Below, piece by piece: positions 1,064 through 37,460 of a stretch of 64,000 nucleotides of DNA. The stretch comes from an uncultured Bacteroidales bacterium. GTDB taxonomy: Bacteria > Bacteroidota > Bacteroidia > Bacteroidales > FEN-979. The stretch lies in NCBI GenBank assembly GCA_903877385.1, contig CAIRDP010000011.1, positions 1 through 64,000 of the forward strand, in the 5' to 3' direction. How positions within the stretch are numbered: position 1 is the first letter of the stretch; each line of letters opens with the position of its first letter. Made by a program: the position numbers and the translations under genes. The notes beneath the pieces were generated by a model. The model did no database searches. It had not been told where the DNA came from and worked only from the letters and a program-made list of their open reading frames with translations.

Positions 1064-1065
1064 GA

Positions 1066-2040: not shown

Positions 2041-2061
2041 TTTTCATGTTTTTTCATACTG

Positions 2062-2105
2062 CATCCTGCATCTGGCGCGAAGCGCCATCATCGGCGCGAA
2101 GCGCT
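2062..2105 (+). repeat. Short hairpin repeat, copy 2, with a tandem hairpin
   Basis: GGCGCGAAGCGCC at 2074-2086 is a perfect 5-bp-stem hairpin. A second near-copy, GGCGCGAAGCGCT, is at 2093-2105. Together with the CTGCATCCTGCATC lead-in, this matches the reverse complement of 1031-1063. It sits in the divergent intergenic region between the polyprenyl synthase and radical SAM genes. It is a REP-like extragenic element of unknown role. Confidence 0.5.
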
Positions 2106-2164
2106 TCATCCGGCCAATAAAAGTAATCATTTTCTGTGTTGCGTGGAATGTCGATAGAAAATAC

Positions 2165-2172
2165 GAATTTTG
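2165..2172 (+). promoter_or_regulatory. Possible -7 promoter element of the radical SAM gene
   Basis: GAATTTTG matches TAnnTTTG at 5 of its 6 fixed positions and lies 18 nt before the ATG at 2191. A GTTG at 2138-2141 could serve as the -33 box, but the 23-nt spacing is longer than usual. Confidence 0.25.
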
Positions 2173-2190
2173 CAATTCGAACCACATACC

Positions 2191-2967: not shown

Positions 2968-2970
2968 AAG

Positions 2971-3375: not shown

Positions 3376-3397
3376 TTGTAATAAGCGAAGCACATCG

Positions 3398-9671: not shown

Positions 9672-10737
9672 ACCCTTTTTTACCGCCATAGCTGGATGAG
9701 GTGTTGCTCCTTCCGAAAAGTTGGATGTTGTTGAATTCCAAGGCAATGCTTATTTCATGGGCCCCACCCGTCCCCATCATTGCCCCTGAGATCGGAATAT
9801 CATAACTGTACATGAAGCGAACGCTCATACCTTCGGCAAATTTATAGTTATATCCTGCAAGTAAGGCAAAAACATTGGAAACCGCGCCGGTCATAGTGGT
9901 TTTATACCATCCGCCCAGATAGACATTAAATTTCATCGCGTTAAGTCCGACTTCAAGGGTATTAAAACGCCCCTGGCTGATAAACATCACCCCCGGATTT
10001 AACTTTAAGGCGTCGCTAAACCCGGCGGAACTCAAACTTGAGGTTGAGCCGCTCTCTCCGATTTGAAAAACGCCGTCAACATTCACAATCCACTTTCGTG
10101 GCAGTGGTGAACTGGATGTTTGTAAAAATGATTCATCCGGTTGAAATAAATGATCCACAGCAAACCCAAAGTTCCCTGTGAAGGAACCTGATTCATTCGA
10201 GGTTTTCAAAATACCACCGGCAGCAAAATCTGGAAAGGTTTTTTTATTCGCATCGGGGTGAATTAACGCAGTCTGATAAATGTTGCCGTATTTTTCATTA
10301 AGCTGGTCGGTAACGACGAAATCATTCCAGTTGATGGTCTTCTGCATAAGGCTTGCCTTGACTCCTACCTGTGCGACCATGAACTCGGTAATCGGCACCC
10401 TCACTGCAATATCCAATGCCAGTTCCAGGTCATGAATAAAACCCACACCTTCATTGTCCGAATTAACCATCAGCCCGATACCTCCGGCTCCCGGCAGGTT
10501 CCTGTCGCCAAGATCTGCCGAGAAATAATACGATTTGTAATTGACTGGCAGGTTTGGCCATTGATCCCTGTAATCAAACCTCGCCCTCAGTCCTGGCGAA
10601 CTCCCGGTATTTGCCGGATTGTAATAAATCGGCGTACTGAAATACTGAGTATATAACGGGTCCTGTGCCAAAACACGATCAGCGGCGCAAATGCAGATAC
10701 CCCCGATAATCATGTACAAAACAATCTTTCTTTTCAT
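9640..10737 (-). CDS. PorP/SprF family T9SS outer-membrane protein (first copy)
   Basis: This 365-residue protein has a signal peptide cleaved near VLAQ and then the family motif QDPLYTQYFSTPIYYNPANTGS, with the barrel-like strands typical of PorP/SprF (GGIGLMVNSDNEG, VAQVGVKASLMQKTINW, VRFMYSYDIPIS). It lies 17 nt downstream of the giant adhesin gene, the same order as sprB-sprF, in which SprF is required for SprB to appear on the surface. I infer that it is the dedicated partner of the 8901-residue protein. Its C-terminal coding region overlaps the next gene by 32 nt, which suggests translational coupling. It is about 45 residues longer than the second copy and clearly diverged from it. Confidence 0.92.
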   Translation of the reverse strand: MKRKIVLYMIIGGICICAADRVLAQDPLYTQYFSTPIYYNPANTGSSPGLRARFDYRDQWPNLPVNYKSYYFSADLGDRNLPGAGGIGLMVNSDNEGVGFIHDLELALDIAVRVPITEFMVAQVGVKASLMQKTINWNDFVVTDQLNEKYGNIYQTALIHPDANKKTFPDFAAGGILKTSNESGSFTGNFGFAVDHLFQPDESFLQTSSSPLPRKWIVNVDGVFQIGESGSTSSLSSAGFSDALKLNPGVMFISQGRFNTLEVGLNAMKFNVYLGGWYKTTMTGAVSNVFALLAGYNYKFAEGMSVRFMYSYDIPISGAMMGTGGAHEISIALEFNNIQLFGRSNTSSSYGGKKGYDHLECPEFY

Positions 10738-10754: not shown

Positions 10755-13700
10755 TTATCTCACCAAAGTTACCGTTCCCATTGTCGAAGTTGATCCTTTA
10801 CCTGTATTGGAACCTTCCCAGACCTTGCCGTCCTTGAACATGGCGGAGATCTTCCAAGTATAAGTTCCCTGTGGCATCAGGTTCCCGTTTACAGTTCCGT
10901 CCCATCCTTCAAGTGGTCTGCCAAAATCATCAAGTGCCGATGATTCCCATAATTTATGACCTGCAATATCATATACCGCGATATTATAGCTGGCAAGGTT
11001 AATGCCTGCAGGTTTAAAGAACCTCACCTGGTAAACCATATCGGTCGGGGCAAAAAGGTTAGGAACATACAGTCCATGGAATATAAACTCGTATTTCAAA
11101 CTGGTTGAGTCCTCGCAGGAATTCGTGCTTGTAACGGCCAGTGTGATAACATAGCTTCCATCCTGATCATATGCGACCTCAGGATTCTCTTCCACGGAAG
11201 TCTTCCCATTCCCAAAATCCCAGTTATAAGTGATGGCATTCTGGGATTTATTGGTGAACTGTAACTTCCCTGAAATACCGTCAACATTATCCCTGTATGT
11301 AAATGCACTCAGAGGTGATTGCAGCACATTGACTGAATCTCTTAGCGTGTCCTTGCAACCATAGTAATCTTTAACCATCAGGGAAGTAAAATATTTACCG
11401 GCCTGATGATACTTATGGGAAGGATTCCGCTGAGTCGAGGAGTCCTGATTATTAACAGGGTCCCCAAACGCCCAGTTCCAGTTAGTGATTATCGTATCTC
11501 CTGCTTTACTTTTATCGGTAAAGAAGACCTCTTGCCGTGAACATGAAACAGGGCTCAGGAATAATGCCTGAGGAAGCTTGTAAACCTTCACATCCCGCTT
11601 CAGAGTATCCCGGCAGCCAAGGCTGTTCTGCACAACAAGCATGGAATGATATTTACCATACCTGGGATACTTGTATGCAGGATTGACAAGGTTGCTTGTG
11701 TCGGTAATCCCGGGACCGGAATCACCGAATTTCCAATAATTCCTTACTATAGAATAGCCATTGCTGTCGGAAAGATTGATGAATTTCGTGGAATCGCCGA
11801 GACAAACAGCAGGGGCAGTAAACGCAGCGATTGGTGTGGATTTTACATGGATGGTCAGGCGGTTCGTATCGGTGATCGTTATATTGTTATTCGTCATTGA
11901 AACGACCAGTGTTACCGTGTAGGTTCCCACAGTGTCGAACTGGTGCCTGATAGTCCTTGTAAACTTGGTGTAATTGGTATCAAGCCCGTCTCCAAAATTC
12001 CAGTACCATCGTTTTATTAAACTAACGGGACCTGAACTGTCATTGAACATCACCTTTTCGCGTTCACACTTCAAGGTGTCAATTTCGGTAATTAATGCAG
12101 TGAGGCATGAAACGAGCACGGTCTTGGAGCTCACATCGCTGCATCCGTTTGAATTAATCGTTTTAAGTTGTACTGTAAATGACCCGTAATCAAGGTACTT
12201 GTGAATAACAGTAAGCGGAACCGGCTTGGTTTGAATTGTAGTATCTCCGTCTCCAAAGATCCAGATAAGCGAATCAATTGCAGCAGCATTCCCAACCGAC
12301 AGGTTATGGAAGGTAACCGTGCTGTCGCAGTATGGAATGGTATCGAATGAGAAATGAGAGACCGGGTGCTGAAATACAATAACCGGGTTATAAATGCTGT
12401 CCCTGCAATTATCAGAATTATAGGCATTTAAAGTCACTGTGTAAATACCCGGGCTTGTAAACAGGTGGGTGGGGTTGTAGGATGTGGATTGATTATTAAC
12501 ACCGCTGTTTGGATCCCCGAAGTTCCAGTGCAGGTCATGCAGGGTATCACCCTGGGCAAGGTTAACTGCATGAAACTGTGTAATCTTCCCAAAACAAACA
12601 GAGTCGGAGGTAAATGTGAAGTCGAGGCTGGGAACAACATTAACAGACTGGTTTATAGTATCCATGCACCCGTTTGAGTCGGTAATGACAAGTCTTACAA
12701 GATAGGTTGTATCAGTAACTGGAAAGATATAGGTCGGATCCTGGGATGAAGAGTTGGCCCCCGGTTCAAAAGTCCAGAGCCATGAAACTATGGGTGCACC
12801 TGTAGTCGTTGAATGGTCGAAGAAAGCCACTTTACCCTTCGGGCAGTGTTTGCTGAAGTAGGTAAAACTGGCAGACGGTCTCACAAAAACACTTACCGAC
12901 ATCGAGAAATCCGCCGAGCAGTTCTGGGTGTTCGTTACTGTCAGCACAACAATATATATTCCAAAGTTCGTATACACATGCGAAGGGTTCTGAAGGTTTG
13001 AAGTGTCGCCGTCTCCAAAATCCCAATGCCATCTGTTGATCGCACCGAACTGGGTCGAAGAAAGGTCATGGAACTGGGTGGCTGAACCGCTGCAGGCATT
13101 ATCATAGTTAAATAAAGCTACCGGCGGAGTTTTCACAAGGACCTGACCCGTGGTATCACTCTGACAGTTATACGAATTCTGCACAACCAATGAAACATTA
13201 TACACTCCTTCGGAGGAATAAGTATGCGTGGGATTTTGCATGGCCGAGGTAGTTCCGTCCCCGAAGTCCCAGTTCCATGAAATCAGTGTTCCTGAATGCG
13301 CCACAGACTGGTCGGTAAAATGGGTTAACTCTCCCCTGCATACAGTATCGGCCTTGTAATGTGCCGATGGTTTCTTGTTTATATCTACAGATTTGGAGAC
13401 AGTATCGTTACAGTTATTAATGTTCGTAACGCTAAGAACAACCTGGTAAGTTCCGCCCGCTGAATAAATATGCGAGGGATTTGGCAAGGCAGAGTAGTTA
13501 TTAACTCCCGAACCGGGATCCCCAAAATTCCAATACCAGCTGATGATCGGCCCTCCACCGTTCAGCTGTGAAAGATCCTGGAAGCTCACAGGTGATGACT
13601 GGCAGCGTGTTGCAGCAAAGGTAAAATTTGCTACAGGGCTTGCCCCGACAGAGACCTGGTGTGTAACCGAATTGGCACAGCTGTCGCTTGTTTTGATAGC

Positions 13701-28700: not shown

Positions 28701-31700
28701 AGCACTAGGAGTATAGGTTGGGTGTAGTATTGTACTGTTGGAAAAAATACCCGTCCCGGTACTTGACCATAACAGGCTGGCAAAATTGCTCGCCGAAGAT
28801 CCGATTATGCTGAAACTGTTGCTGCCGCATGTCGTTCCGTCAGGCCCGGCATCTACTACCGGCATAGGGGTAACATGCAGAACCATATTGTCGGTAACCG
28901 TGGCAATACAGGGTAAGATACTTGTAACTGTGGCTGTAAGGGTTACTGTAACATCCGTAACGCTGGGCGTATAAGTAGGCGAAAGCGTATTTCCGTTAGC
29001 CAAAATTCCGGTTCCTGAAGCACTCCAGTTTATTGTGGCATAATTGTGGGCATTTGCATCGAGTACGGTATAGCTCCCGGGCTGGCAAACATAGGCATCG
29101 GCCCCTGCATAAACGTCGGCAACCGGATTAAAATAAAGGGTCATGCTTGAAGTGACAGGCATGAGACAAGGGGCAGCAGGAGTAACACTCAAAGTAAGCA
29201 TTACGCTTCCCGAAATAATATCGGCAGCACCCGGCGTATAGGTTGGGGTCAATGTACCTCCTCCTGAAAATGTTCCTGTCCCTGAAGTTGTCCAGGCCAG
29301 GGAAGTATAATTGGTGGCGCTTGCTCCACTGACGGTGAATGTTGCATTTGCACAGATTGTGGCCGACGGACCGGCATTGGCTGTTGCCGAGGGTGTGATC
29401 GTAAGGACACGGGTACTGGTCACATTGCCTGAACAAGGTGCAACGGGATATGCAGTCAGGGTGAGGGTTGCTCCCCCGTTAAGGATATCAAGGGCACTCG
29501 GGGTATACACAGTGGCCAGTTGCGTTGCATTTGAAAAAGTCCCGGTACCGCTTGACGACCAGAGCGTGGATGCCGCATGGGTAACACTGGCACCAATCGT
29601 AAGGAAGGTGCTGCCCTGGCAAATGAGACCTGCCGGACCGGCGATGACAACGGGTTTCGACTGTATGGTCAGGGTTTGCTGGCTTGTGACGGTATTGGTA
29701 CAAGGTAATATGCCGGTTGCACTCAGGGTTAAAATGACCGATCCGGCAGTTATATCAGCAGCGCTTGGGGTATAGGTTGGTGCCAGCAAGGTAGGATTGG
29801 CGAAAGTACCCGAACCCGAAGTGCTCCATAAAAGAGCAGAATAATTGCTTGCCGTGGCATCGTTGACCGTATAGGTCTGGTTTTCACAGATCAGGGAATT
29901 GGTGCCGGCATATGCTGTCGGGAAGGGATGAATGGTTAGGATGGATGAAGATGTGGCTGGTGTTCCGCAAGGGTTGTTGGGGCTGGCGGTAAGGGTGAGG
30001 GTTACTGAACCTGCTGCAATGTCAGCCACACTCGGGGTGTAAATGGGCGCAATTATGTTGTTATAATTAAACGTTCCTGTTCCGGAAGTTGACCAGAGAA
30101 GTGAGAGATAATGCTGGGCGGTGGCTCCCGTGATATTATAGGTTCCCTGGCATATTGTGGCACCAGGTCCTGCATAAGCTGAAGGAGCTCTCGTAATAGT
30201 CACGGTAATGTTGTCGGACCTGGAACCTACACATGGGGCTGTAGCATCCGCGGTAAGCGTAAGTATAACGGAACCATTAAGGATATCAGTTGCCGTGGGT
30301 GTATACGTGGTATACAGCACATTGGCATTGGAAAAGGTTCCGGATCCGCTGGTAGTCCATGTGAGTGAAGTCGAATTCTGCACAGTTGCCGTATTCGTTG
30401 TGTAAGTATTTCCTTCGCAAATGGAAGCGTTGGTCCCGGCATTCACCACCGGCATTTTCGAAAGAGTCAAAAGCATCGTACTTGTGGCTGTACCGGCACA
30501 GGGAGGGTTACTGTTCGCAGTAAGGGTAAGATGCACTGAACCTGCTGCAATATCAGCCGATCCCGGTGTATACACCGGGTTGATAATGTTAACATTGGAG
30601 AAGGAACCGTTTCCTGATGTCGTCCACGTAATGGAAGAGTAGGAAGAGGCTGAGGCTGTTGTTACCTGGAAAGTTGTATTTTCACAAATATTCGCATCCG
30701 ATCCTGCATTTGCCGATGGGGCAGAAATTATCGTCAGCAGCATCGCATCTAAGGCCGTATGGGAGGTACAGGGTGAAACCCCGTCCCCTGTAAGAGTGAG
30801 TGTGACATTTCCAGTTGCAATATCAACTCCGCTAGGAGTGTAAATAGGCATGAGGGAGCCGGATGCAGGAGAAAAAGTTCCAGTTCCGGATGTAGACCAG
30901 GCAATGCTTGAATTGTATTGTGCCGTTGCGCCAATAACGGGGAAGGTTGCCCCGGAACAAATAGTGGCATCCGGTCCTGCATACATCACAGGATCATGGG
31001 TAATATGTAAAATCATCTGGCTAGTGGCAGTCGAAGAAAGGCAGGCAGCCTGTCCGATGGCTGTCATGGTGAGGGTGACAAACCCGATGGAAATATCACT
31101 GAGCGAAGGTGTATAGGTAGGGAACAGGGTGTTTCCATTGGAGAATGTACCCGTACCGTTCGTTGACCAGTTGAGGCTTGAATAGTTTGTAGCCGTGGAA
31201 CCCGAAATTGTATGAGTAAGCCCCTGGCAGATGGTTGCATCCAGACCGGCATAAGCAGTTGGCGGAGCCGTAATATGAATGGTCATTGCGTCTGTATTGG
31301 GGGTCAGGCAAGGCGACAGGGGTTCTGCAGTCATTGTAAGCACAACCGACCCGGCGACCACATCAGCATCGGATGGAATATACGTTGGCGACAGGGTGGT
31401 AGCATTCAATAATGTACCCGTTCCAGAACTTACCCATGAAACGGATAAAGCATGCTGGGCTGTTGCATCAGGCACGGTATAAGCTGTTTTGTTGCATACA
31501 CTTGCGTCGGCCCCGGCATAGGCAATCGGATTCGAGGTGATGGTGAGTGTCATTGAATTTGACACAGAGGAGCATGGCGGATGAACCGCGGTAATTGTAA
31601 GAATGACCGCTCCGTTGGTTATATCGCTTGCGCTGGGAGTGTAAACAGGATTAATAGTATTCGGATTATTGAATGAACCGGTTCCTGAAGATGACCAGGT

Positions 31701-34700
31701 AAGGTTGGAATAACCGGAAGCGTTGGCGCTTGATAAAGTATGGGTGCTGCCCTGGCAAATAGTGGCATCCAGCCCTGCATTAGCCTGAAGGTTTATAACG
31801 TCGTACCTTACTTCATCGGTTGCTGAACCTGAACAGGGGGAATTTGCGCTGGCATGCAGTGTCAGATAGACATAACCGGCCGTAAGGTCAGCAGAACCGG
31901 GGGTATAAACCGGAGCCAGGGTATTAGGGTTGGAGAATGTTCCGTTTCCCGCCGTGGTCCAGTTTAAAATATTGTAATTGCTGGCTGTTGCTCCCGTGAC
32001 TGTATTGGGCCCGGCACACATGGTTCCGTCGGGTCCCGCATAAACCGTTGGATTCTGGTTGATTGTAAGGGTAAAAGCATCGGTTGCGGTGGCACAGGGG
32101 GCAAACCCGTTCACGGTCAGGGTAAAAGTTATTGTTCCTGTAGTTCCATCTCCTGAGCTGGGAGTGTAGGTCGGAGTAAGGGTGTTCGCATTGATTACCC
32201 CCCCCGAACCAGTAGTTGACCAGGTTACCAGGGAATAATTTGAAGCGCCGGCTCCGGTAAAAGTATATGCGGAACCAACGCAGGCAGCCTGGGGCGGCCC
32301 TGCCTCAGCTGTTGGTGGAGCGGCAATGTGGAGGGTCATGGTACTCGTTGCGTTGGAAACGCAGGGAGTATTTGCATAGGCTGTAAGGGTAAGGGTTACC
32401 GAACCGCTGGCAATATCCGTAACGCTGGGGATATAAACAGGTGAAAGGGAATTACCGTTAGTGAAGGAGCCGGTTCCTGAAGTCGTCCACTGAAGTGAAA
32501 GATAATGAGTTGCCGTGGCACCAGCCACTGAAAAATTTGAGCCCCCGCATATTGTTCCATCAGGCCCGGCATAAGCCGCAGGGGGTGCAACAACAGTGAG
32601 CTTCATCTGGTCGGAAACCGGTGTTAAACAAGGCGCTGTGCCTGTGACAGCTAAAGTCAGGATGACCGAACCGTTTGAAATATCTGTAGCTCCCGGTGTA
32701 TACGTGGGTTGTAAAAGGTTAGGATTGACAAATGTCCCATCGCCTGCTGTTGTCCAGTGGACCGAGGTATAGCTGGAAGCGTTTGCGTCGGTAATAGTAT
32801 AAGTAATTCCCTGGCAGATGGATGCATCAGCACCGGCATTGGCGGTGGGCATTGCTGTAACTGTTACAGCAAAGGGTGCCGAGATAAGGCCCGACCCACA
32901 GGTATTGGTTCCCTGCACGGTAATAATACCACTGGCCGCCCCGGCAGAAAAATCAACTGTGACGTTGTTGGTTCCGGCACCCGATACGATCGCTGCCCCG
33001 GTAGGCAGGGTCCATGAGTACCCGGTAGCATTCAGGATAACCGGTACGGAATAGGAAACGCCGGTTTGTCCCTGGCAAACTGCAGATGTTCCTGTAATTG
33101 AACCGGCGGCTGCCGGAAGGGGATTAACTGTTAGTGCGTAGGCCGGAGATACTGCCCCGCTGCCGCAAATGTTAACACCCTGTACGCTGACATTCCCGCT
33201 CGCTGCGCTGGAAGTGAAAGTGACCGTGACACTATTCGAGTTCGCCCCTGTAATAATAGTTGCACCGGTTGGAAAACTCCAGTTATAGGATGTGGCATTC
33301 AATATCGTCATAACTGAATATGCAACTGTTTGTCCCTGGCAAACGACCGCAGTCCCTGTAATGCTTCCTGCAGCTGCCGGCAAAGCGCCTACTGTTACCG
33401 CAAAGTTCGGCGAGATCATACCGTTGCCGCAGGTGTTTGTCCCCTGGACGGTAAAATTCCCGCTGGTTGCAACAGCCGAAAAATCAACCGTGATACTATT
33501 GGTTCCGGCACCCGAAACAATTGCGGCACCGGTAGGCAAGGTCCATGTATAGGAAGAAGCATTCGTTATAAGGGGTACAGTATAGATTACACCATTCTGG
33601 CCCTGGCAAACCGGTGTTGCCCCTGTAATGGTACCGGCATTGCCGGGAAGAGGATTTACCGTCACGGGAAAAGCGGGTGAACTGCTTCCCGCTCCACAGG
33701 AATTTGTTCCATATACTATAACATTCCCGCCTGCAGCTGAAGCTGAAAAATTAACAAGTATACTGTTGGTGTTTCCACCTGAAGCAACAGAAGCTCCAAC
33801 AGGTAAAGTCCAAACGTATCCTGTTGCATTGGTTACCGGGGCAACTGAATAAGTGACCCCCGACTGGCCCTGGCAAACCGGGCTGGTTCCTGTGATTGTT
33901 CCTGCCACAGCAACCGTTTGGTTGACCGTTAAAGTAAAATCAGGGGAGGGAGCACCGTTCCCGCAGGAATTGGTTCCATAAACTGAAATAAAACCACTGG
34001 CGGCTGTGGGTAAAAAATTAACCGTGATGCTGTTTGTGTTGGATCCTGAAACTATATTTGCTCCCGAAGGCAATGTCCAGTTATATCCGCTTGCATTCGC
34101 AATAGTCGGAACAGTATAGACCACGCCGTTTTGTCCCTGGCAGACCGGCGAAAGTCCCGAGATGCTGCCTGCAGGGCCAGGAAGTGAATTTACCGTAACA
34201 GAATAGGCTGGAGAAACAGTACCCGAACCGCATGAGTTGGTACCATATACCGTGATTGACCCTGAGGCGGCCGTTACCGGGAAATTTACCGTGATGGAGC
34301 TGGTTCCTGAACCGCTGGCAATGACAGCACCTACCGGTAAGGACCAGGTATACGATGTGGCGCTGGAAATGCCAGGAACGCTGTAAGCGACACCCGACAT
34401 TCCCTGGCAAACCGAGCTGCTTCCAGTAATGGACCCTGCTGCTGAGGGCAACTGATCTACGTTAACCAGAAGAGGAGCTGAAACACCTCCCGAACCACAG
34501 GCGTTATTCCCCTGAACAGTTACATTGCCGGTGGAAGCAGAAGAAGAATAACTGACCGTAATAATATTTGTGCCCGAACCCCCGCTTATGTTTGCTTGTG
34601 GTGGCAGGGTCCAGACATAATTACTTGCATAAGCTATACCAGGCACTGAATAAATCACATTATTCTGCCCCTGGCAAACAGTTGCAGGTCCTGTTATGCT

Positions 34701-37460
34701 TCCTGCAGTTGCGGGAAGCGAATTCACAGTGACTACATGGGGAGCAGATACCATGCCGTCGCCACATGAATTTGTTCCCTGAACTGTAATACTGCCGCTG
34801 GAAGCCGAGGCTGAAAAATCAACCAGGATAGTATTTGTGTTTGAACCTGATACAATGGTCGCACCGCTCGGAACAGTCCAGGCGTAGCCCGTTGCATAGC
34901 TAATCGGCAGTACCGAGAAACTGACACCGGTCTGACCCTCGCAAACGGAGAAGAGCCCTGTAATGGTTCCGGGTGCCGAAGGCAATGGATCAACAGTAAC
35001 ATTAAAGGCCGATGAAGTTCCCCCGCTTCCACAAGCATTGCTTCCATAAACTGTAATAATTCCACTTACAGCAGCAGCCGAAAAATTGATCGTGATACTA
35101 TTGGTATGATCCCCGCTTGCTATACTGGCGCCGGTTGGCAAACTCCAGATATAATCGGTTGCATTATTGATCACCGGAACTGAATATGCCACTGCCGAAG
35201 CTCCCTGGCAAACTGTGGCTGAGCCGGTAATTGTAGCGGCATCCGATGGCAGGGGGTGTACCGTTACCAGGTAGGGAGATGAAGTTGTGCCGGTTCCACA
35301 GATGTTCAATCCTGTAACAGTGAATGATCCGCTTAATGCCGTATTTACAAAATTTACAAGGATGCTGGCGGTATTGCTGCCCGAAATGATGGTTGCCCCG
35401 GTAGGGACAGTCCAGTTATAAGAAGTTGCATTGGCAATGGCAGGAACAGTGTACTGAATGTTTTGAGAGCCTGCACAAAGTGAGGCAGTGCCTGTGATCG
35501 TCCCTGCTGCTCCGGGCAAAGAACTGACTGTGATCAGGTAAACCGCGGATATTGTTCCATTTCCGCAGGAATTTGTGCCATAAACGCTGAGGTTGCCTGA
35601 AGTTGCAGAGGCCGAAAAAGACATGGTCAGGCTGCCGGATGACCCGGTTAAGGTTGCGCCGGTGCCGGTATATGCCCAGATATAGGATGTAGCATTGGCT
35701 ATTGATGGAACACTGTAAGCTACGCCTGATTGCCCCTGGCAAACCGTGGAAGTGCCTGAAATCGTTCCGGCTGCAGCAGGCAGGGGATTTACTGTAACAG
35801 CATAGTTTCCTGATACCGTTCCGTTGCCGCAGGAATTTGAACCGTAAACACTCAGGTTCCCGGAAGTCGCGTTGGGGGCATACGTGATAGTTATACTGTT
35901 GGATAAACCTGTGATGGTTGCACCTGTGCCGGTATATGCCCAGGTATATGATGTTGCATTGGAGATTGAAGGAACACTGTAGGCCACAGTTGTTTGTCCC
36001 TGGCAAACTGAAGCAGTTCCCGAGATCGCCCCGGCTGCCGCAGGCAGGGGATTTACAGTAATAGGATAGTTGCCTGATACCGTGCCATTCCCGCAGGAAT
36101 TTGCCCCGAATACAGTGAGGTTTCCGGAAGTCGCATTGGAAGCAAAGGCGATGCTTATATTATTTGTGCTGCCATTAGAAACAGTGATCCCTGTGCCCGT
36201 ATATGCCCAGTTATAGGATGTGGCATTGGTAATGGAGGGTACCGAATACGCCACATTGCTTTGCCCCTGGCAAACCGCAGGTGTTCCCGAGATTGCCCCT
36301 GCAGCAAGAGGTAAAGGATTTACAGTTACAGGATAATTTGCTGAAACAATACCGTTTCCGCAGGAATTTATTCCGTATACGGTCAGGTTTCCCGAGCTTG
36401 CATTGGAAGCGAACGTGATGGAAATATTGGATGTAGACCCGTTAGTTATTGTTGCGCCTGTGCCTGTATAAACCCAACTATAGGTTGAAGCATTGGCTAT
36501 GGTAACCGAATAACTAACATTAATCTGGCCGGCACATACAGAGGAGGAGCCTGTGATGGAGGAGGGTGTGCCGGGAAGAGAAGTTACAACTAGGGGAAAA
36601 GGGTCTGAAACTGCCCCGTTGCCGCATGAATTTGTTCCGTATACCGAAACATTCCCGCCTACGGCTGAATTTGTGAAATTAACTGTGACAGTTCTCGTAT
36701 TTGAACCTCCTGTAATATTTGTCCCGCTAGGGAAAGCCCAGATATAGCCGGTCGCATTGGCAATAGCAGCCACCGAGTAAACCACACTATTCTGGCCCTG
36801 GCATACCGGGGAGGATCCTGAAATAGAGCCGGCAGCTGCCGGGAGCGGATTAACGATTACTGTGAAAGGAGCAGAAACCGTACCTGTACCGCATGAATTG
36901 CTGCCCTGAACTGTAACAGAGCCAGAAACAGCAGAGGTCGAGTAAGTTACAGTGATGTTATTTGTACTATAACCGCTGGTAATACTGGCCCCGGTGGGTA
37001 ATGTCCAGTTATATCCGCTGGCATTTGCAATGGCTGGTACCGAATATGTTACTCCACTTTGTCCCTGGCATACCGTAGAAGAACCGCTGATAGTTCCGGG
37101 AGTTCCTGGAAGGAGTGTTATTGTTAATGTCATGTGGGCTGATACCGTAGTAGTAGGGCATGCAGCATTGGTTGCAGTAAGCGTTATAGTTGCATGGCCG
37201 AGAGCAATATCTGCCGCCGAAGGGGTATATGTTGGGTTCAGTGTCGTGGCTGAAGGAGAAAAAGTGCCAGGACCGGGGGAGCTGGTCCAAAGCAATGAGG
37301 CCCCACTGGTCACAGTAACTCCACTGAAAGTGTATGATGTTCCCTGGCAAATCGTTGCATCTGTCAACCCGGTAATAACAATTGGACATTGTGCTGCCGC
37401 CTGAAACCCATTAATTAAAAAGAAGGTTGTGAGGGCTAAAAAGTATAAACGTTTCTTCAT
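10755..37460 (-). CDS. Giant 8901-residue T9SS surface adhesin with about 100 Ig-like/PKD modules
   Basis: One uninterrupted 26.7-kb frame encodes a protein of roughly 0.9 MDa, larger than Flavobacterium SprB (about 6500 aa). A signal peptide (1-24, ending QAAAQ) is followed by about 100 modules that I counted by eye: 40 of type B (AG-x-x-x-x-I-C...PTYTPS-x-x-D), 34 of type A (ITG-x-x-x-VCQGQ...N-S-CG-x-G), 4 of type C (GGP-x-x-FC-x-GG) and 22 PKD (W-x-FGDG/P). The order is B1; A x16 (122-1541); B x35 (1542-4644); A x2; C x4 (4822-5125); B x4; A x16 (5481-6898); PKD x22 (6899-8795). The last ~106 residues (GLYVPNLFAP...YDIAGHKLWES...GWDGT...MPQGTYTWKI) are a gliding-motility/type-B T9SS sorting domain. 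Nearly every module carries two Cys, probably one disulfide each. No catalytic domain was seen. It heads the adhesin operon, with a PorP/SprF partner 17 nt downstream. The role as adhesin or gliding filament is inferred. Confidence 0.92.
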   Translation of the reverse strand: MKKRLYFLALTTFFLINGFQAAAQCPIVITGLTDATICQGTSYTFSGVTVTSGASLLWTSSPGPGTFSPSATTLNPTYTPSAADIALGHATITLTATNAACPTTTVSAHMTLTITLLPGTPGTISGSSTVCQGQSGVTYSVPAIANASGYNWTLPTGASITSGYSTNNITVTYSTSAVSGSVTVQGSNSCGTGTVSAPFTVIVNPLPAAAGSISGSSPVCQGQNSVVYSVAAIANATGYIWAFPSGTNITGGSNTRTVTVNFTNSAVGGNVSVYGTNSCGNGAVSDPFPLVVTSLPGTPSSITGSSSVCAGQINVSYSVTIANASTYSWVYTGTGATITNGSTSNISITFASNASSGNLTVYGINSCGNGIVSANYPVTVNPLPLAAGAISGTPAVCQGQSNVAYSVPSITNATSYNWAYTGTGITVSNGSTNNISIAFASNATSGNLTVFGANSCGNGTVSGNYPITVNPLPAAAGAISGTASVCQGQTTVAYSVPSISNATSYTWAYTGTGATITGLSNSITITYAPNATSGNLSVYGSNSCGNGTVSGNYAVTVNPLPAAAGTISGTSTVCQGQSGVAYSVPSIANATSYIWAYTGTGATLTGSSGSLTMSFSASATSGNLSVYGTNSCGNGTISAVYLITVSSLPGAAGTITGTASLCAGSQNIQYTVPAIANATSYNWTVPTGATIISGSNTASILVNFVNTALSGSFTVTGLNICGTGTTSSPYLVTVHPLPSDAATITGSATVCQGASAVAYSVPVINNATDYIWSLPTGASIASGDHTNSITINFSAAAVSGIITVYGSNACGSGGTSSAFNVTVDPLPSAPGTITGLFSVCEGQTGVSFSVLPISYATGYAWTVPSGATIVSGSNTNTILVDFSASASSGSITVQGTNSCGDGMVSAPHVVTVNSLPATAGSITGPATVCQGQNNVIYSVPGIAYASNYVWTLPPQANISGGSGTNIITVSYSSSASTGNVTVQGNNACGSGGVSAPLLVNVDQLPSAAGSITGSSSVCQGMSGVAYSVPGISSATSYTWSLPVGAVIASGSGTSSITVNFPVTAASGSITVYGTNSCGSGTVSPAYSVTVNSLPGPAGSISGLSPVCQGQNGVVYTVPTIANASGYNWTLPSGANIVSGSNTNSITVNFLPTAASGFISVYGTNSCGNGAPSPDFTLTVNQTVAVAGTITGTSPVCQGQSGVTYSVAPVTNATGYVWTLPVGASVASGGNTNSILVNFSASAAGGNVIVYGTNSCGAGSSSPAFPVTVNPLPGNAGTITGATPVCQGQNGVIYTVPLITNASSYTWTLPTGAAIVSGAGTNSITVDFSAVATSGNFTVQGTNTCGNGMISPNFAVTVGALPAAAGSITGTAVVCQGQTVAYSVMTILNATSYNWSFPTGATIITGANSNSVTVTFTSSAASGNVSVQGVNICGSGAVSPAYALTVNPLPAAAGSITGTSAVCQGQTGVSYSVPVILNATGYSWTLPTGAAIVSGAGTNNVTVDFSAGAASGIITVQGTNTCGSGLISAPFAVTVTAMPTANAGADASICQGITYTITDANASSYTSVHWTTAGDGTFVNPNLLQPTYTPGATDISNGSVILTLAVTGTAPCLTPVSDQMKLTVVAPPAAYAGPDGTICGGSNFSVAGATATHYLSLQWTTSGTGSFTNGNSLSPVYIPSVTDIASGSVTLTLTAYANTPCVSNATSTMTLHIAAPPTAEAGPPQAACVGSAYTFTGAGASNYSLVTWSTTGSGGVINANTLTPTYTPSSGDGTTGTITFTLTVNGFAPCATATDAFTLTINQNPTVYAGPDGTMCAGPNTVTGATASNYNILNWTTAGNGTFSNPNTLAPVYTPGSADLTAGYVYLTLHASANSPCSGSATDEVRYDVINLQANAGLDATICQGSTHTLSSANASGYSNLTWSSSGTGSFNNPNTINPVYTPSASDITNGAVILTITAVHPPCSSVSNSMTLTITSNPIAYAGADASVCNKTAYTVPDATAQHALSVSWVSSGTGTLLNATTLSPTYIPSDADVVAGSVVLTMTAEPLSPCLTPNTDAMTIHITAPPTAYAGLDATICQGLTHTISGSTATNYSSLNWSTNGTGTFSNGNTLFPTYTPSLSDISIGFVTLTMTAIGQAACLSSTATSQMILHITHDPVMYAGPDATICSGATFPVIGATAQYNSSIAWSTSGTGTFSPASGSLMPIYTPSGVDIATGNVTLTLTGDGVSPCTSHTALDAMLLTIISAPSANAGSDANICENTTFQVTTASASSYSSITWTTSGNGSFSNVNIINPVYTPGSADIAAGSVHLTLTANSNPPCAGTATSTMLLTLSKMPVVNAGTNASICEGNTYTTNTATVQNSTSLTWTTSGSGTFSNANVLYTTYTPTATDILNGSVILTLTADATAPCVGSRSDNITVTITRAPSAYAGPGATICQGTYNITGATAQHYLSLLWSTSGTGTFNYNNIIAPIYTPSVADIAAGSVTLTLTASPNNPCGTPATSSSILTIHPFPTAYAGTNSLICENQTYTVNDATASNYSALLWSTSGSGTFANPTLLAPTYTPSAADITAGSVILTLSATGILPCTNTVTSQQTLTIQSKPVVIAGPAGLICQGSTFLTIGASVTHAASTLWSSSGTGTFSNATQLATVYTPSALDILNGGATLTLTAYPVAPCSGNVTSTRVLTITPSATANAGPSATICANATFTVSGASATNYTSLAWTTSGTGTFSGGGTLTPTYTPGAADIISGSVMLTLSVTPAAPCLMPVTSSMTLYFNPVADVYAGADAYVCQPGSYTVLDANAHNYATINWSASGTGILANGNTLSPTYTPSVTDVTVTLTATVTSILPCIATVTDNMVLHVTPMPVVDAGPDGTTCGSNSFSIIGSSASNFASLLWSSTGTGIFSNSTILHPTYTPSASDIAAGSVTLTLTASGGSGCSTTPSDFFVLHVIGPATANAGPDASVCENGSYTINSASATNYTAVNWTSTGTGTLSGAGTLTPTYTPSAADLLAGSVTLTLHSTAISPCTDASDQMVLYIIPLPVIDAGPNSTTCAGSNFSITLATALNTSAVQWTTSGTGTFSNPDILLPVYTASPADIVAGHVQLTLTAQANTPCSGTATDNFILTFISGATAYAGPPANICQINTYTVSAATASNYSALNWTSSGTGGFTSGTTLTPTYTPSAADIATGSVTLTLHASGNPPCTDASSSTILTITHSPLASAGASAGLCEGSSYTVGDATASYYSGLLWTTTGNGTLTNESTLTPTYLPSSADYTIGSVTLTLTAYANSPCIGQVTSSKVLLLQYAPSADAGPDATICQPNPYTIVGASAANYLNLNWTSSGTGSFTGNGTLTPAYHPSVADYATGLVTLTLHANGIAPCNTPATASMVLHLVSSPIADAGPDAAICGGGSYTVSGASVANQSSFLWTTSGTGSLTNPATLTPTYTPSAADISAGSVTLTLTAYATAPCASNATDQMIITIQSQPTSNAGSDATICEGGSHTLSGSATHYASFNWTTNGTGTFANGNTFTPTYTPSSSDIAAGSVIITLTAVAITPCGVNASDQMTLTLISKPITNAGPDASICSTGGYLLSQATASHYSSILWSTSGDGTFTNSGALNPTYNPGPADITLGHATLTLTAQPLSPCTSPVSDFMVLNIIGIPTANAGPDISICEGSYTLTGASATNYSTLQWTSSGSGTLTNATTLTPTYTPSPADILSGSVTLTLTASGILPCTSQAADAITLTIIPKATANAGSDASICGLNNYTVNNATASNFISLVWTHNGNGTLSNATTLSPTYSPSPLDLISGSVTLTLSATSNAPCTSVATDQMVIQLVPNPLPYAGPNTSICGGNFTVNGATCSNYASLYWTSSGTGSFTNSTTLNPTYTPSAADNTAGSVILSLHALALAPCIGEVVAGMTLTILPAATVQAGGNAIICSGDNYPISGSSATNYASVNWTSSGSGSFSNSALLHPTYFPSASDRANGSVVLTLSATGLPPCNGVVTDAMVLTIAPVATANAGPDINLCEGSILDITAATAGNYSTLSWSSSGTGTFSNTTWLNPSYTPSSADIAAGSVILTLSATGVVPCTAVATDAMVLTITHPAQANAGPDALVCAGNPFYIPTASAGNYTTIYWTTSGTGTFLNGTTLTPTYDPSVADITAGSVILTLHAVSPAPCTGEVTDGLVLTILPAATSYAGGNATICAGNNYTLSGAQATHYSSVHWTTSGSGTFTNSSLLNPTYFPSFSDITAGSVTLTLNVTGISPCGSTVSDAMVLSITSSPTANAGPDATACSLTYTITGASASNYSLISWTSTGTGTFSGGNTLSPTYTPSAADRNAGSVTLWLNANSIAPCTGTVSDQMLLTLPALPTANAGNDADICQGSSYQISGATAANYSSFQWTSSGSGSFANAGTLTPTYTPSVADIASGLVTLTLTVQGFSPCNSVAVDAMALTITKLAVCDAGPSATICAGSNYTISGASASNYSALLWQTSGTGTFQNFNTLNPTYIPSTSDIALGSVNLNLTAYNMAPCTGNTSDVMILTINQNVAVDAGPDEGVCYPAPFTVTAATASNYLNISWSTTGTGTFINTTTLHPTYFPSASDLGSGSVVLTITGQGISPCSASASDIMILGIDSPPGPAGTITGTATVCQGQNGVTYSIPVVTSASGYVWSVPSGASIVSGSNTNSITVNFGPSAVSGNITVYPVNACGSGTISSPFFVQVNGVPGAPGSISGLQVICQGTNGVVYSITPISGATGYNWTVPVGSTIVSGSNTASIIVDYGLTAVSGNVTVTGVNSCGGSTTSTLAIVVHPMPPTPAIAAGGPVTFCEGGSVTLTASPSGYNYLWSPGGQITQSIVVTSSGSYSVVLSDAFGCGSFASNVINVTVYLKITPVITAGGPTTFCAGGNVVLSAPAGAGYTYLWSNGATAKDITVSTAGSYNVVITDANGCVSYPSNTILVIINPLPPAPVVTAGGPITFCAGGSVTLSTPVVGGYTYLWSDGETTPSIIVTAQGAYSVVVTDSHNCTSLSSNIITVTVNQLPPTPSITPTGPINLCQGGSVDLTSSPAPSGGGYLWSTTETTQTITVNTAGSFTVTVSDASGCQSLPSAAVVTTIQPLPASNAGPDATACSSVYTITGASAANYSLISWSGSGTGTFTNGNTLSPAFTPSVADMNAGSVTLVMTVTGILPCTGTAVDAMVLSLPPLLTASAGSDASTCENVPYLVTGATATNYLNLQWTSSGTGTFTNATSINPTYTPSAIDIAQGSVTLTLTANGLPPCSSTITDNMVLTIVKTSVANAGPDAAICSGADFLVSGASAGNFANILWMTTGTGTFLNVNTIHPTYIPSAADIAAGSVDLTMIAYNIAPCTGNTSDVMVLTINQNVTVNAGPDASVCYPSAFTVSGASAGNYLNLAWTTSGTGTFINNGTLSPTYFPSITDLGAGSAVLTLTGTGIPPCTGPAVDMMTLHVDGAPGNAGTITGTTPVCQGQNGIVYSVPDIANATNYVWTLPSGATIVSGNNTNIITVDFGATAVSGDITVFATNSCGSGGISAPFHVTVTPLAGAAGNIAGTSIVCQGQNGVSYSVAAIPNASGYNWTLPAGAVIASGVNTNNITVNFTTSAVSGNITVQGTNSCGSGTVSPPYAVTVNPLPSPAGTISGPSIVCQGQSGAVYSVPAITGATAYAWSLPTGAGIVSGANTNVITVNFSALAASGTITVTGTNACGNGLPSIAFAVTVNPLPSAAGSITGSSSVCAGQSAVIYTVPAIGNVTGYSWSLPSGATIATGANTNSITVDFSASATSGVIIVEGTNACGAGQASAPFAVTVNTLPLAAGSITGPASVCQGQAGVSYSIAAIPNATGYNWSLPSGATIASGANTNSIMVDFSATASSGTITVLGTNTCGTGSSSSPFAVTVSPLPSAAGTISGLALVCQGQTNVLYSVTPVLNATSYLWTVPSGASIISGQGTQSIIVSYSSAAASGLITVNGNNICGDGQSSSLPVTVEILPLPAGSIVGLSAVCQGQAGVIYTVPVIGNASGYNWTLPAGASIVAGANTNSIIVNFSVSAVSGSITVQGTNTCGSGPASAPFAVTVNTLPFAAGTITGLASVCQGQTGVSYSIAAIPNATGYNWTLPSGATIATGANTNSITVDFSATASSGIITVVGTNACGTGLTSAPFTVTVNLLPSDAGTITGLATVCQGQANVLYLVTPVLNATSYVWTVPSGASIISGQGTQSIIVSYSSAATSGLITVNGNNICGDGQSSSLPVTVEILPLPAGSIVGLSAVCQGQAGVMYTVPVIGNASGYNWTLPAGATIVSGANTNSITVDFSASASSGPITVQGTNICGPGPASAPFTVTVNTLPFAAGTITGLASVCQGQTGVSYSIPAIPNATGYNWTLPPGASIATGTNTNSITVDFSASASSGTITVQGTNACGTGLTSAPFTVTVNSLPSAAGTITGLATVCQGQINVMYLVAAVLNATSYVWTVPTGAVIISGQGTQSIIVSYSLAATSGLVTVNGNNLCGDGQSSSLPVTVEILPSQAGSIVGSSLVCQGQTGLTYMVPVISNAIGYDWTLPVGASIVAGANTNVITVDFSASASGGAITVQGTNTCGSGPASAPFTVTVNTLPFPAGTITGLASVCQGQTGVSYTIAVIPNASGYNWSLPIGATIASGANTNSITVDFSATATSGTITVQGTNACGTGTPSASFAVTVNILPSGAGLISGQSVVCEGETGVVYSVSPILNATSYTWTLPVGATIVAGANSNVITVDFAIGSIDGNITVAGTNLCGNGLSSTPFPVTVNLLPTPAGQITGTPVVCQGQSGLSYSVQTIAGATGYNWTLPAGASILAGSNTSSILVAYSSGASSGFITVQGTNSCGSGTVSNPYLVTVDISPDAEFQFSNNLCVGQSVQFIDQSLQKGGGAINSWQWSFGDPASGSGNTSTLPSPVHIFVSSGAHTVALTITNVNNCSSTITHVVQSYALPLADFTATPSCSGSPTQFTDQSVANANAIASWDWDFGDGSTHSALQNPSHTYPGAGIFNATLIIINSNGCTDTVVKSVQVSSLPNAAFISSVQNCVGAPVDFTDQSSTSFGYILTWTWDFGDGTTPVTINYPGPANILHSYTLLGTYIVKLTVLTSENCSSSVTHTVTVTSGPIADYTYGTTLCVGLPVQFTDQSQTNGAGPISLWQWNFGDPGSGASNTSSQPNPSHSFTTAGFHTVLLTVTNINSCTNTTSKVIEIFSLPVANFTADSACLGSVTTFTDNSTPTGTIISWNWDFGDGSTHSSLQNPTHTYGSSGTFQVSLTVTNSHGCTHSLTKPIQVVIPPLADFSSNAPNCFGSPVYYTDLSTNQFGIITTYIWDFGDGTTQTILFPNSPDVSHIFTGTSLQHVVRLTVITDHGCTSFKEHTVISNPKPLANFSYPSLLCKGQDIAFTDLSQATGGVNIVAWSWNFGDPTSGSSNTSALQNPTHSFTAAGPFSVRLIITNDLNCKDTVIQTVTINDSPVTNFSNDNACEGAATTFTDLSLPNAPSIVSWEWDFGDGNQIILYSPAPPTVTHPYSYAGSYQVVLTVINSNGCSQSVTKTVVVYPPPVAEFTASTQNCSNTPVEFTDESHALHGFIVRRTWLFGDGHDTIITNPSSNLVPHSYSSGGVYSVSLTVKTSDSCQKTIVHTIVIGSSPIADFGHSAVQCEGSPVQFNDQSQTNGGAIIDQWLWNFGDPLSGTANLSSLQNPVHSFTSSGNFNVQLIVINAVSCRDTVIKPIVIGQKPVANFHADTACFGSATSFTDQSTSTGTITTWDWDFGDGSPHVHTQNAQHLYLTSGTLNASLTVTNISGCTNSVSKQVKVNALPVAAFSYAAVNCAGAPVTYNDLSFTPQGYIVTWHWTFGDGHDTIIHFPGNQNVSHIYLNGGSYNVVLAIKTSDSCANSVTHQVSVGASPVANFTFAATRCQSSPVSFQDLSQLNGGGPIISWYWNFGDPGSGVNNYSALPNPSHIYSAGGTYQVVLSVTNINNCNDTVSKSVDINKKPSAHYKADTVCRGELTHFTDQSVAHSGTLISWNWDFGDGTTSAMQNPTHTYSSEGVYNVSLVVQNSYNCQSDTTGQVLVKTPPVALFNYDNACSGSATQFHDLSSTQFGAINRWHWDFGDGDTSNLQNPSHVYTNFGIYIVVLTVTNTQNCSADFSMSVSVFVRPSASFTYFSKHCPKGKVAFFDHSTTTGAPIVSWLWTFEPGANSSSQDPTYIFPVTDTTYLVRLVITDSNGCMDTINQSVNVVPSLDFTFTSDSVCFGKITQFHAVNLAQGDTLHDLHWNFGDPNSGVNNQSTSYNPTHLFTSPGIYTVTLNAYNSDNCRDSIYNPVIVFQHPVSHFSFDTIPYCDSTVTFHNLSVGNAAAIDSLIWIFGDGDTTIQTKPVPLTVIHKYLDYGSFTVQLKTINSNGCSDVSSKTVLVSCLTALITEIDTLKCEREKVMFNDSSGPVSLIKRWYWNFGDGLDTNYTKFTRTIRHQFDTVGTYTVTLVVSMTNNNITITDTNRLTIHVKSTPIAAFTAPAVCLGDSTKFINLSDSNGYSIVRNYWKFGDSGPGITDTSNLVNPAYKYPRYGKYHSMLVVQNSLGCRDTLKRDVKVYKLPQALFLSPVSCSRQEVFFTDKSKAGDTIITNWNWAFGDPVNNQDSSTQRNPSHKYHQAGKYFTSLMVKDYYGCKDTLRDSVNVLQSPLSAFTYRDNVDGISGKLQFTNKSQNAITYNWDFGNGKTSVEENPEVAYDQDGSYVITLAVTSTNSCEDSTSLKYEFIFHGLYVPNLFAPTDMVYQVRFFKPAGINLASYNIAVYDIAGHKLWESSALDDFGRPLEGWDGTVNGNLMPQGTYTWKISAMFKDGKVWEGSNTGKGSTSTMGTVTLVR
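11076..16766 (-). repeat. PKD-domain array (22 modules) with a fading three-module period
   Basis: This encodes residues 6899-8795 as 22 PKD modules averaging 86 residues, each with W-x-FGDG or W-x-FGDP, a NPxHxY-like strand and a xLTVTNxxGC end. Modules 1, 4, 7, 10 and 13 carry FGDPxSG; the two following each of them carry FGDG. The FGDP-type starts are 783, 780, 792 and 777 bp apart, so the three-module period is old and has drifted in length. Modules 16-22 are irregular. Confidence 0.9.
16767..21020 (-). repeat. Type-A Ig-like array 2 (16 modules) containing a higher-order repeat
   Basis: This encodes residues 5481-6898 as 16 tandem type-A modules. The middle of the array has a three-module superstructure (see 17559-19952). 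The outer modules are diverged and follow no such period. Confidence 0.88.
17559..19952 (-). repeat. Three tandem 798-bp higher-order repeats within the giant gene
   Basis: The start of equivalent type-A modules (GTITGLAS/GSITGPAS followed by VCQGQ) falls at 19952, 19154, 18356 and 17558, exactly 798 bp apart each time. An internal marker, TGCTTTGAGT and close variants encoding the SGQGTQSI region, recurs at 19544, 18746 and 17948, again 798 bp apart. Each unit is three modules (89+88+89 residues), distinguished by the middle one ending ILPLPAGSIVGLSAVCQGQ. The unchanged length and high nucleotide identity indicate recent unequal crossing-over or slipped-strand duplication. Confidence 0.9.
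22086..22997 (-). repeat. Type-C Ig-like array (4 modules of 76 aa)
   Basis: This encodes residues 4822-5125 as four 76-residue modules with the pattern TAGGPxTFCxGGSVxL, YLWSxG, SIxVxxxGSYSVxVxDxxGC. It is a separate Ig-like family that interrupts the A and B modules. Two type-A modules (4645-4821) precede it and four type-B modules (5126-5480) follow it. Confidence 0.88.
23529..32837 (-). repeat. Type-B Ig-like array 1 (35 modules, about 89 aa each)
   Basis: This encodes residues 1542-4644 as 35 tandem modules averaging 88.7 residues. Each starts AGPDASIC-like, has a conserved WTTSGTGTFSN core, then LxPTYTPSAADIAAGSVTLTL and a second Cys in a PC pair. Some modules lost or gained one or two residues. 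Nucleotide sequences have diverged considerably between copies, so this array is older than the 798-bp repeats at 17559-19952. Confidence 0.9.
32838..37097 (-). repeat. Type-A Ig-like array 1 (16 modules, about 89 aa each)
   Basis: This encodes residues 122-1541 of the giant protein as 16 tandem modules averaging 88.75 residues. Each starts near ITG/ISG followed by VCQGQ, has a central YNWTLPTGA-like strand and a SITVNFS-like strand, and ends with NSCGxG and VTVNPLPAAAG. Modules 3-6 form a subfamily with the variant core WAYTGTGA, a sign of local duplication. Confidence 0.9.

What the first reader, a model, noticed from the sequence alone, without database searches (positions are those of the whole stretch)
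10755..37460. An 8901-residue, about 100-module T9SS surface protein
A single uninterrupted 26.7-kb frame has a signal peptide, a type-B T9SS C-terminal domain and, between them, only Ig-like and PKD modules (40 B, 34 A, 4 C, 22 PKD by my count). At about 4 nm per module an extended chain would be on the order of 400 nm. It exceeds SprB, the giant gliding adhesin, and has no obvious ligand-binding or catalytic head, so it looks like a pure fibre or stalk. The blocks are sorted by module type (A, B, A-C, B, A, PKD), which suggests distinct mechanical or spacing segments.
Basis: partly seen in the sequence, partly recalled or inferred. Interest (0 to 1): 0.85.

Follow-up and report, generated by a model that had tools for sequence, protein, structure and literature searches.

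The report
Hundred-module gliding-type surface fibre
An uncultured bacterium encodes a single 8,901-residue surface fibre of 100 small modules, with a carrier protein bearing the kind of tail cysteine that ties gliding adhesins to a moving internal track in a studied species; a block of exactly 35 modules is kept in three genera while parts around it change or are swapped.

Summary
One 8,901-aa frame (10755-37460, minus strand) has a signal peptide, exactly 100 Ig-like/PKD modules and a divergent type-B T9SS C-terminal domain. The longest exact repeat is 43 nt, so a collapsed assembly is unlikely.

It is more than a stalk of unknown use. A SprF-type carrier follows 17 nt downstream and ends in a conserved tail cysteine (36 of 37 homologs of at least 290 bits). 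GldK with its invariant cysteine, GldJ, GldB, GldD, GldH and SprA are encoded in the genome. The second SprF in the row lacks that cysteine and sits beside a PorE-like gene. Best reading: a SprB-like adhesin towed on the gliding track, with a single-cysteine variant of the link.

New: a block of exactly 35 modules is kept, mostly position for position, in three genera, while the first B block and the PKD stalk vary. The gene is a mosaic: at the same locus two congeners carry a different distal part on the same base. The distal 6,864 residues hold 18 Lys/Arg.

It is not a record (a relative has a 9,290-aa frame). The closest solved protein is the Aureispira grappling hook, the main rival.

The parts
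10755..37460 (-). giant T9SS adhesin, 8,901 aa, about 895 kDa from residue 25 on
37389..37460 (-). signal peptide (residues about 1-24, by eye)
   Evidence: sequence; no predictor run
37107..37373 (-). single N-terminal A module (tip)
   Evidence: HMM; coordinates
32844..37106 (-). first B block, 16 PKD_6 modules; 1 Lys/Arg
23538..32843 (-). A35 block: 35 A modules, same number in three genera and mostly pairing position for position; AlphaFold2 model of an A-A pair has mean pLDDT 96.5
22980..23537 (-). 2 B modules
22092..22979 (-). 4 C (Ig_7) modules
21030..22091 (-). 4 A modules; three of the four are closest within the protein to modules near the end of the A35 block (62-70%)
16797..21029 (-). 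second B block, 16 PKD_6 modules, no Lys/Arg; contains a 3-module higher-order repeat (best partners 88-92% identical in its core)
11109..16796 (-). PKD stalk, 22 PKD_4 modules
13404..13667 (-). 13th PKD module, in or near which the inferred recombination breakpoint lies: distal part resembles other-genus genes, proximal part the same genus
10758..11108 (-). divergent type-B T9SS C-terminal domain
9640..10737 (-). SprF1, PorP/SprF-family carrier, 365 aa
9655..9657 (-). codon of tail Cys361 of SprF1 (..LECPEFY)
6078..9746 (-). second type-B cargo (about 1,200 aa; listed start TTG, true start probably 60-80 nt further in, by eye) with A-type modules
5125..6108 (-). SprF2, PorP/SprF-family carrier without a tail cysteine
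3398..5116 (-). PorE-like TPR/PD40/OmpA protein (below the PorE model's cut-off)
38025..40730 (-). ribonucleotide reductase gene upstream; marks the same locus in two congeners

Best explanation
The protein is a T9SS type-B surface adhesin that works like SprB of Flavobacterium johnsoniae. It is exported through SprA, picked up at its C-terminal domain by the SprF carrier encoded 17 nt downstream, and held on the cell surface by it. The cysteine five residues from the carrier's C-terminus forms a disulfide with the invariant cysteine of GldK in the moving periplasmic track, so the fibre is towed along the cell and drives gliding when its outer part sticks. The last nine PKD modules, the C-terminal domain and SprF are the standard base; the outer 90 or so modules are an exchangeable fibre. 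Within it a rod of 35 A modules has a fixed length, each module stapled by one disulfide. Shown by sequence: the architecture, the SprF partner, the conserved tail cysteine, the GldK cysteine, the gliding gene set, the equal count and the mosaic. Inferred: export, the disulfide to GldK, movement, binding by the outer modules, intramodule disulfides, and that the rod length matters.
For: SprF1 is a PorP/SprF family member (187.5 bits, cut-off 90.55), 17 nt downstream. A Cys 4-6 residues from the C-terminus occurs in 36 of 37 distinct SprF1 homologs of at least 290 bits read from my loci (own included; exception L121, Ser) and in 40 of all 44 listed; SprF2 in the same window has none. Own GldK has two Cys 57 residues apart: Cys264 (20 of 24 sequences) and Cys321 (23 of 23 that reach the column); this fits the Cys285/Cys343 pair of F. 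johnsoniae, whose Cys343 bonds to SprF (PMC12635249; abstract, section 7, part 1 of section 10, passages). Own genome has SprA (2602.6 bits), GldJ (481.6 over its pieces), GldK (586.3), GldB (261.4), GldD (223.2), GldH (127.5), all above cut-off. The C-terminal domain is in 40 of 43 family genomes at E<=1e-20. The A block is exactly 35 in the three genes that have this arrangement; best partner in the same position 34/35, 32/35, 28/35. Mosaic. Two Cys in 97 of 100 modules.
Against: The F. johnsoniae SprF tail has a Cys-Xaa-Cys motif described as invariant in close homologs, and both cysteines were needed for gliding; SprF1 has one. PorG of P. gingivalis manages with one, but that is a different protein. 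The closest solved relative is the grappling hook GhpA (E 1.1e-105), and no SprB repeat (PF13573) reaches its cut-off. Of the gliding families, GldH (above cut-off) and GldB and GldK (below) also ring in the control Bacteroides ihuae, and GldJ and GldK weakly in other controls; only GldD and SprA ring in none of 14. The giant is accessory: of 8 genomes of its genus only 3 (own, G006, G007) have a C-terminal domain above 80% identity; four have only one match at E<=1e-20 and G005's second is a 394-aa frame, and these genomes could glide with other adhesins. No gliding of this family is documented in any call. The genome is a draft assembly and no reads were seen.
Confidence: 0.6

Rival explanations
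1. It is a grappling-hook protein like GhpA of Aureispira: several copies bundle into a thick filament that catches prey, and it is not towed for gliding.
For: GhpA (9flp, 5,898 aa) is the best PDB match of both halves of the protein (E 1.1e-105 for residues 4471-8901, 1.2e-70 for 1-4470). The best stretches lie in the B and C modules, and the CTD profile matches the GhpA C-terminus weakly (E 0.76). GhpA is T9SS-secreted and heptameric (PMC11205867 and PMC13319060, passages).
Against: The A-module profile does not match GhpA at E<=10; the printed part of the GhpA alignment shows only module-level similarity. The tail cysteine of SprF1 fits a track link. Oligomeric state was not testable, the carrier of GhpA was not examined, and no T6SS search was made.
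Confidence: 0.2
2. It is a static type-B adhesin or fibre, anchored to peptidoglycan through a PorP/PorE-type complex like PG1035 or Fjoh_3952, used for attachment or aggregation.
For: A PorE-like gene (3398-5116) lies in the same gene row; PorE-PorP-PG1035 complexes are reported (PMC9143113, abstract) and Fjoh_3952, with a PorE-like gene in its operon, is static (PMC12618676, passages).
Against: The PorE-like gene follows SprF2 and the 1,222-aa cargo, not SprF1; SprF2 lacks the tail Cys, while 36 of 37 SprF1 homologs of at least 290 bits keep it.
Confidence: 0.15
3. The 26.7-kb frame is an assembly chimera or a repeat artefact.
For: The genome is a 67-contig draft, and the gene has a mosaic history.
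Against: No exact direct repeat longer than 43 nt; the order A35-B2-C4-A4 recurs on one contig of another genus and A35-B2 in a third; the frame is open throughout.
Confidence: 0.03

Closest known systems
SprB/SprF of Flavobacterium johnsoniae (gliding adhesin and carrier)
   Same: Huge repetitive T9SS type-B cargo with a PorP/SprF carrier directly downstream; gliding genes and the GldK cysteine present
   Different: Different modules (no SprB repeat above cut-off); carrier tail has one cysteine instead of Cys-Xaa-Cys; 8,901 against 6,497 aa; a Bacteroidales lineage by the record titles of its relatives
GhpA, grappling hook protein A of Aureispira (PDB 9flp)
   Same: Giant T9SS-secreted chain of Ig-like modules, sequence-related over the B and C modules
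   Different: A-module profile does not match it; GhpA is a heptamer used in prey capture; no oligomer evidence here
PG1035-PorP-PorE and Fjoh_3952 type static adhesins
   Same: Type-B cargo with PorP/SprF carrier and a PorE-like gene nearby
   Different: The PorE-like gene lies next to SprF2, behind the second cargo; SprF1 has the tail cysteine that SprF2 lacks

Membership tests
SprB-type gliding adhesin | type-B T9SS C-terminal domain | tested here: inconclusive
   26.7 of 27 bits CHU_C and 24 of 35 bits TIGR04131 for the domain itself; of 35 aligned relatives 35 and 33 match at E<=0.01
SprB-type gliding adhesin | PorP/SprF carrier gene directly downstream | tested here: met
   TIGR03519 187.5 bits, 17 nt gap; that it carries this cargo is inferred
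SprB-type gliding adhesin | carrier tail Cys-Xaa-Cys | tested here: not met
   one tail cysteine only in SprF1; a tail Cys is kept in 36 of 37 homologs
SprB-type gliding adhesin | GldK cysteine that bonds SprF, and track protein GldJ | tested here: met
   GldK Cys321 in 23 of 23 (equated with Cys343 by spacing and invariance, not by alignment to F. johnsoniae); GldJ 481.6 bits
SprB-type gliding adhesin | SprB repeat (PF13573) | tested here: not met
   13.5 bits against a cut-off of 28 in the C-module stretch; absent at E<=0.001 from both halves
SprB-type gliding adhesin | moves helically on the cell surface, needed for gliding | not testable with these tools
   needs live cells
GhpA grappling hook | sequence-related Ig-like module chain | tested here: met
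   E 1.1e-105 and 1.2e-70 by phmmer
GhpA grappling hook | all module types shared | tested here: not met
   A-module profile does not match GhpA at E<=10
GhpA grappling hook | heptameric filament with distal hooks | not testable with these tools
   oligomer state not predicted
PorE-anchored static type-B adhesin | PorE-like protein encoded with the cargo and its carrier | tested here: inconclusive
   PorE-like gene is in the row but next to SprF2

The most novel reading that the evidence does not exclude
The gene is a motor-linked base carrying exchangeable fibres: whole outer fibres of about 90 modules are swapped between lineages by recombination inside the PKD stalk, and the rod of exactly 35 A modules is a length standard held by selection, so that fibre length itself, and not only its sticky parts, is a selected trait of a gliding machine.
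Probability: 0.35. Interest if true: 0.8.

Novelty: new variant of a known kind. Interest (0 to 1): 0.62.

Why it matters
Whether the length of a gliding adhesin is selected becomes testable: three genera keep exactly 35 A modules at 59-69% mean identity while the first B block varies from 11 to 19 and the PKD stalk from 22 to 28. The mosaic says that the base coupled to carrier and track can accept very different fibres, which would make the outer fibre the evolving, substrate-facing part. The conserved tail cysteine in these SprF proteins would extend the disulfide coupling reported in 2025 for gliding adhesins to another lineage, and asks how one cysteine suffices. The near absence of Lys/Arg in 6,864 residues warns that trypsin-based proteomics would mostly overlook such fibres.

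Tried and rejected
Assembly artefact: rejected, because no exact direct repeat exceeds 43 nt and relatives share the order. Record size: rejected, a 9,290-aa frame occurs in G048. Recent repeat inflation as the cause of the size: rejected for the A block (mean within-block identity 45-48%, maximum 66%), accepted in part for the second B block (3-module units, 88-92% in the core). O-glycosylation restricted to the stalk: the motif D[ST][AILVMT] occurs 27 times, 26 inside the PKD block as drawn and the last beginning at residue 8784 on its edge, none in the A, B and C blocks. Within HMM envelopes it is 0 against 18.1 expected in A modules and 17 against 8.9 in PKD modules, but G006's five A modules have 8 against 2.5, and modules are not independent, so I make no claim. 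PCC (polycystin) hit of NCBIfam: 168 bits against a cut-off of 1861. TSST-1 hits of the A profile: E 0.25 or worse, taken as chance. Rfam at gathering scores: only the tRNA. PADLOC on two neighbours: only weak MotB-type matches to the OmpA-like protein. Literature: the listings of the searches for SprB/SprF, giant T9SS or PKD fibres, giant genes, grappling hooks, adhesin mosaicism and Pfam names of these modules showed no title or abstract start describing this family; I opened six papers. The library lacks most subscription journals; the original GhpA paper was not seen, only passages of two papers that mention it.

Not done: no Foldseek match of the A-A model, no model of SprF1, no carrier check for GhpA, no T6SS search, no tree with support values (treekit documentation was printed, no tree built).

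Full report
What is there. The minus-strand frame 10755-37460 is a single open frame of 8,901 aa, in contig C11 of a 4.30-Mb, 67-contig draft genome (98.19% complete). The own record is unnamed. Two relatives can be tied to named records: G006 (same genus) has the contig length and gene place of 'uncultured Bacteroidales bacterium isolate D14_bin-1408', and G054:C12 (same family) has the contig length and first 7,000 bases of '..Loc090907-6m_bin-511'. My own module HMMs cut the protein into exactly 100 contiguous modules: A1 B16 A35 B2 C4 A4 B16 P22. B is PKD_6, C is Ig_7, P is PKD_4. A stretch of A modules matched no Pfam family above cut-off, and the A profile matched no PDB chain better than E 0.25. 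An AlphaFold2 model of an A-A pair from 37 window sequences is confident (mean pLDDT 96.5, pTM 0.75) and mainly beta-strand with one short helix per module; its fold could not be compared. Of 100 modules, 97 have exactly two cysteines, and every A module found in three long-form genes (40 of 40, 39 of 39, 36 of 36) has a pair 58-66 residues apart. I read this as one disulfide per module; it was not measured.

Composition. Between residues 25 and 6888 there are 18 Lys/Arg in 6,864 residues, against 85 in the 2,013 residues of the stalk and C-terminal domain. Two stretches of 1,625 and 1,363 residues have none. Of 30 predicted tryptic peptides of 7-35 aa, one lies in the outer part. Low Lys/Arg is shared by the outer parts of G012 (0.41%, longest free stretch 683), G054 (0.96%, 364) and by G029 (1.14%, 1,286), less so by the short form of G006 (3.66%, 170).

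Partners. SprF1 (9640-10737) starts 17 nt after the giant's stop. Behind it come a second type-B cargo with A-type modules, SprF2, and a PorE-like protein, all on the same strand with little or no space. SprF1 ends in ..LECPEFY. Of 37 distinct homologs of at least 290 bits in my loci, own included, 36 have a cysteine 4-6 residues from the end; the exception (L121) has serine. Of all 44 listed, seven weaker ones included, it is 40 of 44. An earlier count on fewer loci was 30 of 30. SprF2 has no cysteine in its tail. In F. johnsoniae the SprF tail Cys-Xaa-Cys is disulfide-bonded to GldK Cys343, and this couples the adhesin to the track (PMC12635249: abstract, section 7, part 1 of section 10, passages). 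The own GldK has Cys264 and Cys321 with nearly the same spacing (57 against 58), Cys321 in 23 of 23 sequences that cover the column; I equate them by spacing and invariance. GldJ, GldB, GldD, GldH and SprA are above cut-off in the own genome. Controls, 14 genomes each: GldD and SprA none; GldB below and GldH above cut-off in Bacteroides ihuae (not a glider, recalled); GldJ below cut-off in 2; GldK below cut-off in 4. In F. johnsoniae, type-B domains send their cargo either to the gliding machinery or to a static place, and a static one lies in an operon with a PorE-like gene (PMC12618676, passages). The window seems to hold one of each kind.

Relatives. The giant's C-terminal domain was searched in the own genome and 40 relatives (7 same genus, 17 same family, 16 other families of the order): matches in 36 of 41 at E<=0.001. 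In the 43 family genomes held it is in 40 at E<=1e-20. Of the 20 loci first read, nine hold a 2,723-2,995-aa protein made almost only of PKD modules (group I), among them an own paralog of 2,964 aa at C54. Others have a PKD stalk with very different outer parts (group II, the giant's kind). Frames up to 9,290 aa exist (G048). In the giant's genus only 3 of 8 genomes (own, G006, G007) have a C-terminal domain above 80% identity, so the giant's kind is accessory.

A fixed block. The junction core (residues 4465-5566) was sought in the 43 family genomes at E<=1e-150 (at most 17 candidates scored in each): a full match only in the own genome and in G012 of another genus (71%), a part in G054 of a third genus (63% over 426 residues). 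G012's gene lies on two contig ends that overlap by exactly 54 nt: B19 A35 B2 C4 A4 B5.. and ..B12 P25. G054's two pieces, A1 B11 A35 B2 C1 B5.. and ..P28, lie on contigs without overlap, so that they are one gene is inferred. The A block has exactly 35 modules in all three. Best-scoring partners are in the same position for 34 of 35 (own-G012, 69.1% mean identity), 32 of 35 (own-G054, 62.0%) and 28 of 35 (G012-G054, 58.9%); chance would give about 1 of 35. The first B blocks differ in number (16, 19, 11); own and G012 pair there only in part and with a shift, own and G054 not at all (every own module's best partner is the same G054 module). Against a universal rule, G029 of another family has A19 B2 C3 A4 P18 and other A-rich genes have other numbers.

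A mosaic. In the PKD block the own gene is closer to G012 for the first 12 modules (mean best-hit identity 61.7%, against 50.8% to same-genus G006) and closer to G006 for the last nine (69.1%, against 52.5% to G012); the change falls at module 13. The ratio of distances own-G012 to G012-G054 is 0.75 (0.70-0.81) in the A35 block and 1.41 (1.27-1.58) in the last nine PKD plus C-terminal domain (intervals from resampling modules). No tree with support values was built. In G006 and G007 the same locus is flanked by the same ribonucleotide reductase gene (95% over the 729 and 96% over the 340 residues held) and by SprF1 (81% and 77%), yet carries a frame of 4,467 or 4,489 aa with a different, non-orthologous outer part, and the core was not found elsewhere in these genomes (G007 is only 80% complete). 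I conclude that the outer fibre has been exchanged on a conserved base; which lineage was the donor is open.

Mechanism. The best reading is a gliding adhesin of the SprB kind towed through SprF1 and GldK. What is shown is genes, residues and conservation; the disulfide, movement and adhesion are inferred. The single cysteine is a real difference from SprF, where both were needed, so I do not file the pair as SprB/SprF itself. P. gingivalis PorG, with one tail cysteine, is described in the same paper as a partner of PorK, so a single cysteine can be the natural state of such a partner. The chief rival is the grappling hook GhpA, the closest solved protein. A static anchor comes third.

Limits. 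One draft genome and its relatives, mostly fragmented; no reads, no expression data, no signal-peptide predictor, no complex prediction. Structure comparison of the A module and a model of SprF1 could not be run because the queue was full.

Noticed in passing
6078-9746: A second type-B T9SS cargo (about 1,200 aa) directly behind SprF1 has the same kinds of module as the giant (A type, PKD_6, Ig_7) behind a roughly 500-aa N-terminal part without a Pfam match at E<=0.001.
   Followed up: partly
G000:C54:173000-188000 (L051): An own paralog of 2,964 aa, nearly all PKD modules, with its own SprF (tail ..MECPSFY); proteins of this size and make-up were in 9 of the 20 loci first read.
   Followed up: partly
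G000:C33 (L111:2606-3613): A third SprF-like gene sits beside GldJ and has two tail cysteines, 16 and 4 from the end (..AIKCPRF); the same pair occurs in L066, L069 and L073.
   Followed up: no
G048:C111 (L126, L127): A complete 9,290-aa frame with a related C-terminal domain and an A5-PKD18 base, but 6,721 residues outside it that my four module models do not match.
   Followed up: partly
G044:C193 (L128, L129): Two giant frames of 4,842 and 5,580 aa with related C-terminal domains lie in tandem.
   Followed up: no
whole genome: 135 matches to the type-A T9SS sorting domain at E<=0.001 in a 4.3-Mb genome, most of them over the cut-off.
   Followed up: no
41375-44713: A 1,112-aa protein with weak PD40/TolB-propeller matches lies upstream of the giant, beyond the ribonucleotide reductase gene.
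   Followed up: no
48269-57612: Two more large type-A T9SS proteins: 1,407 aa with BACON domains and 1,683 aa with PKD_6 modules.
   Followed up: no
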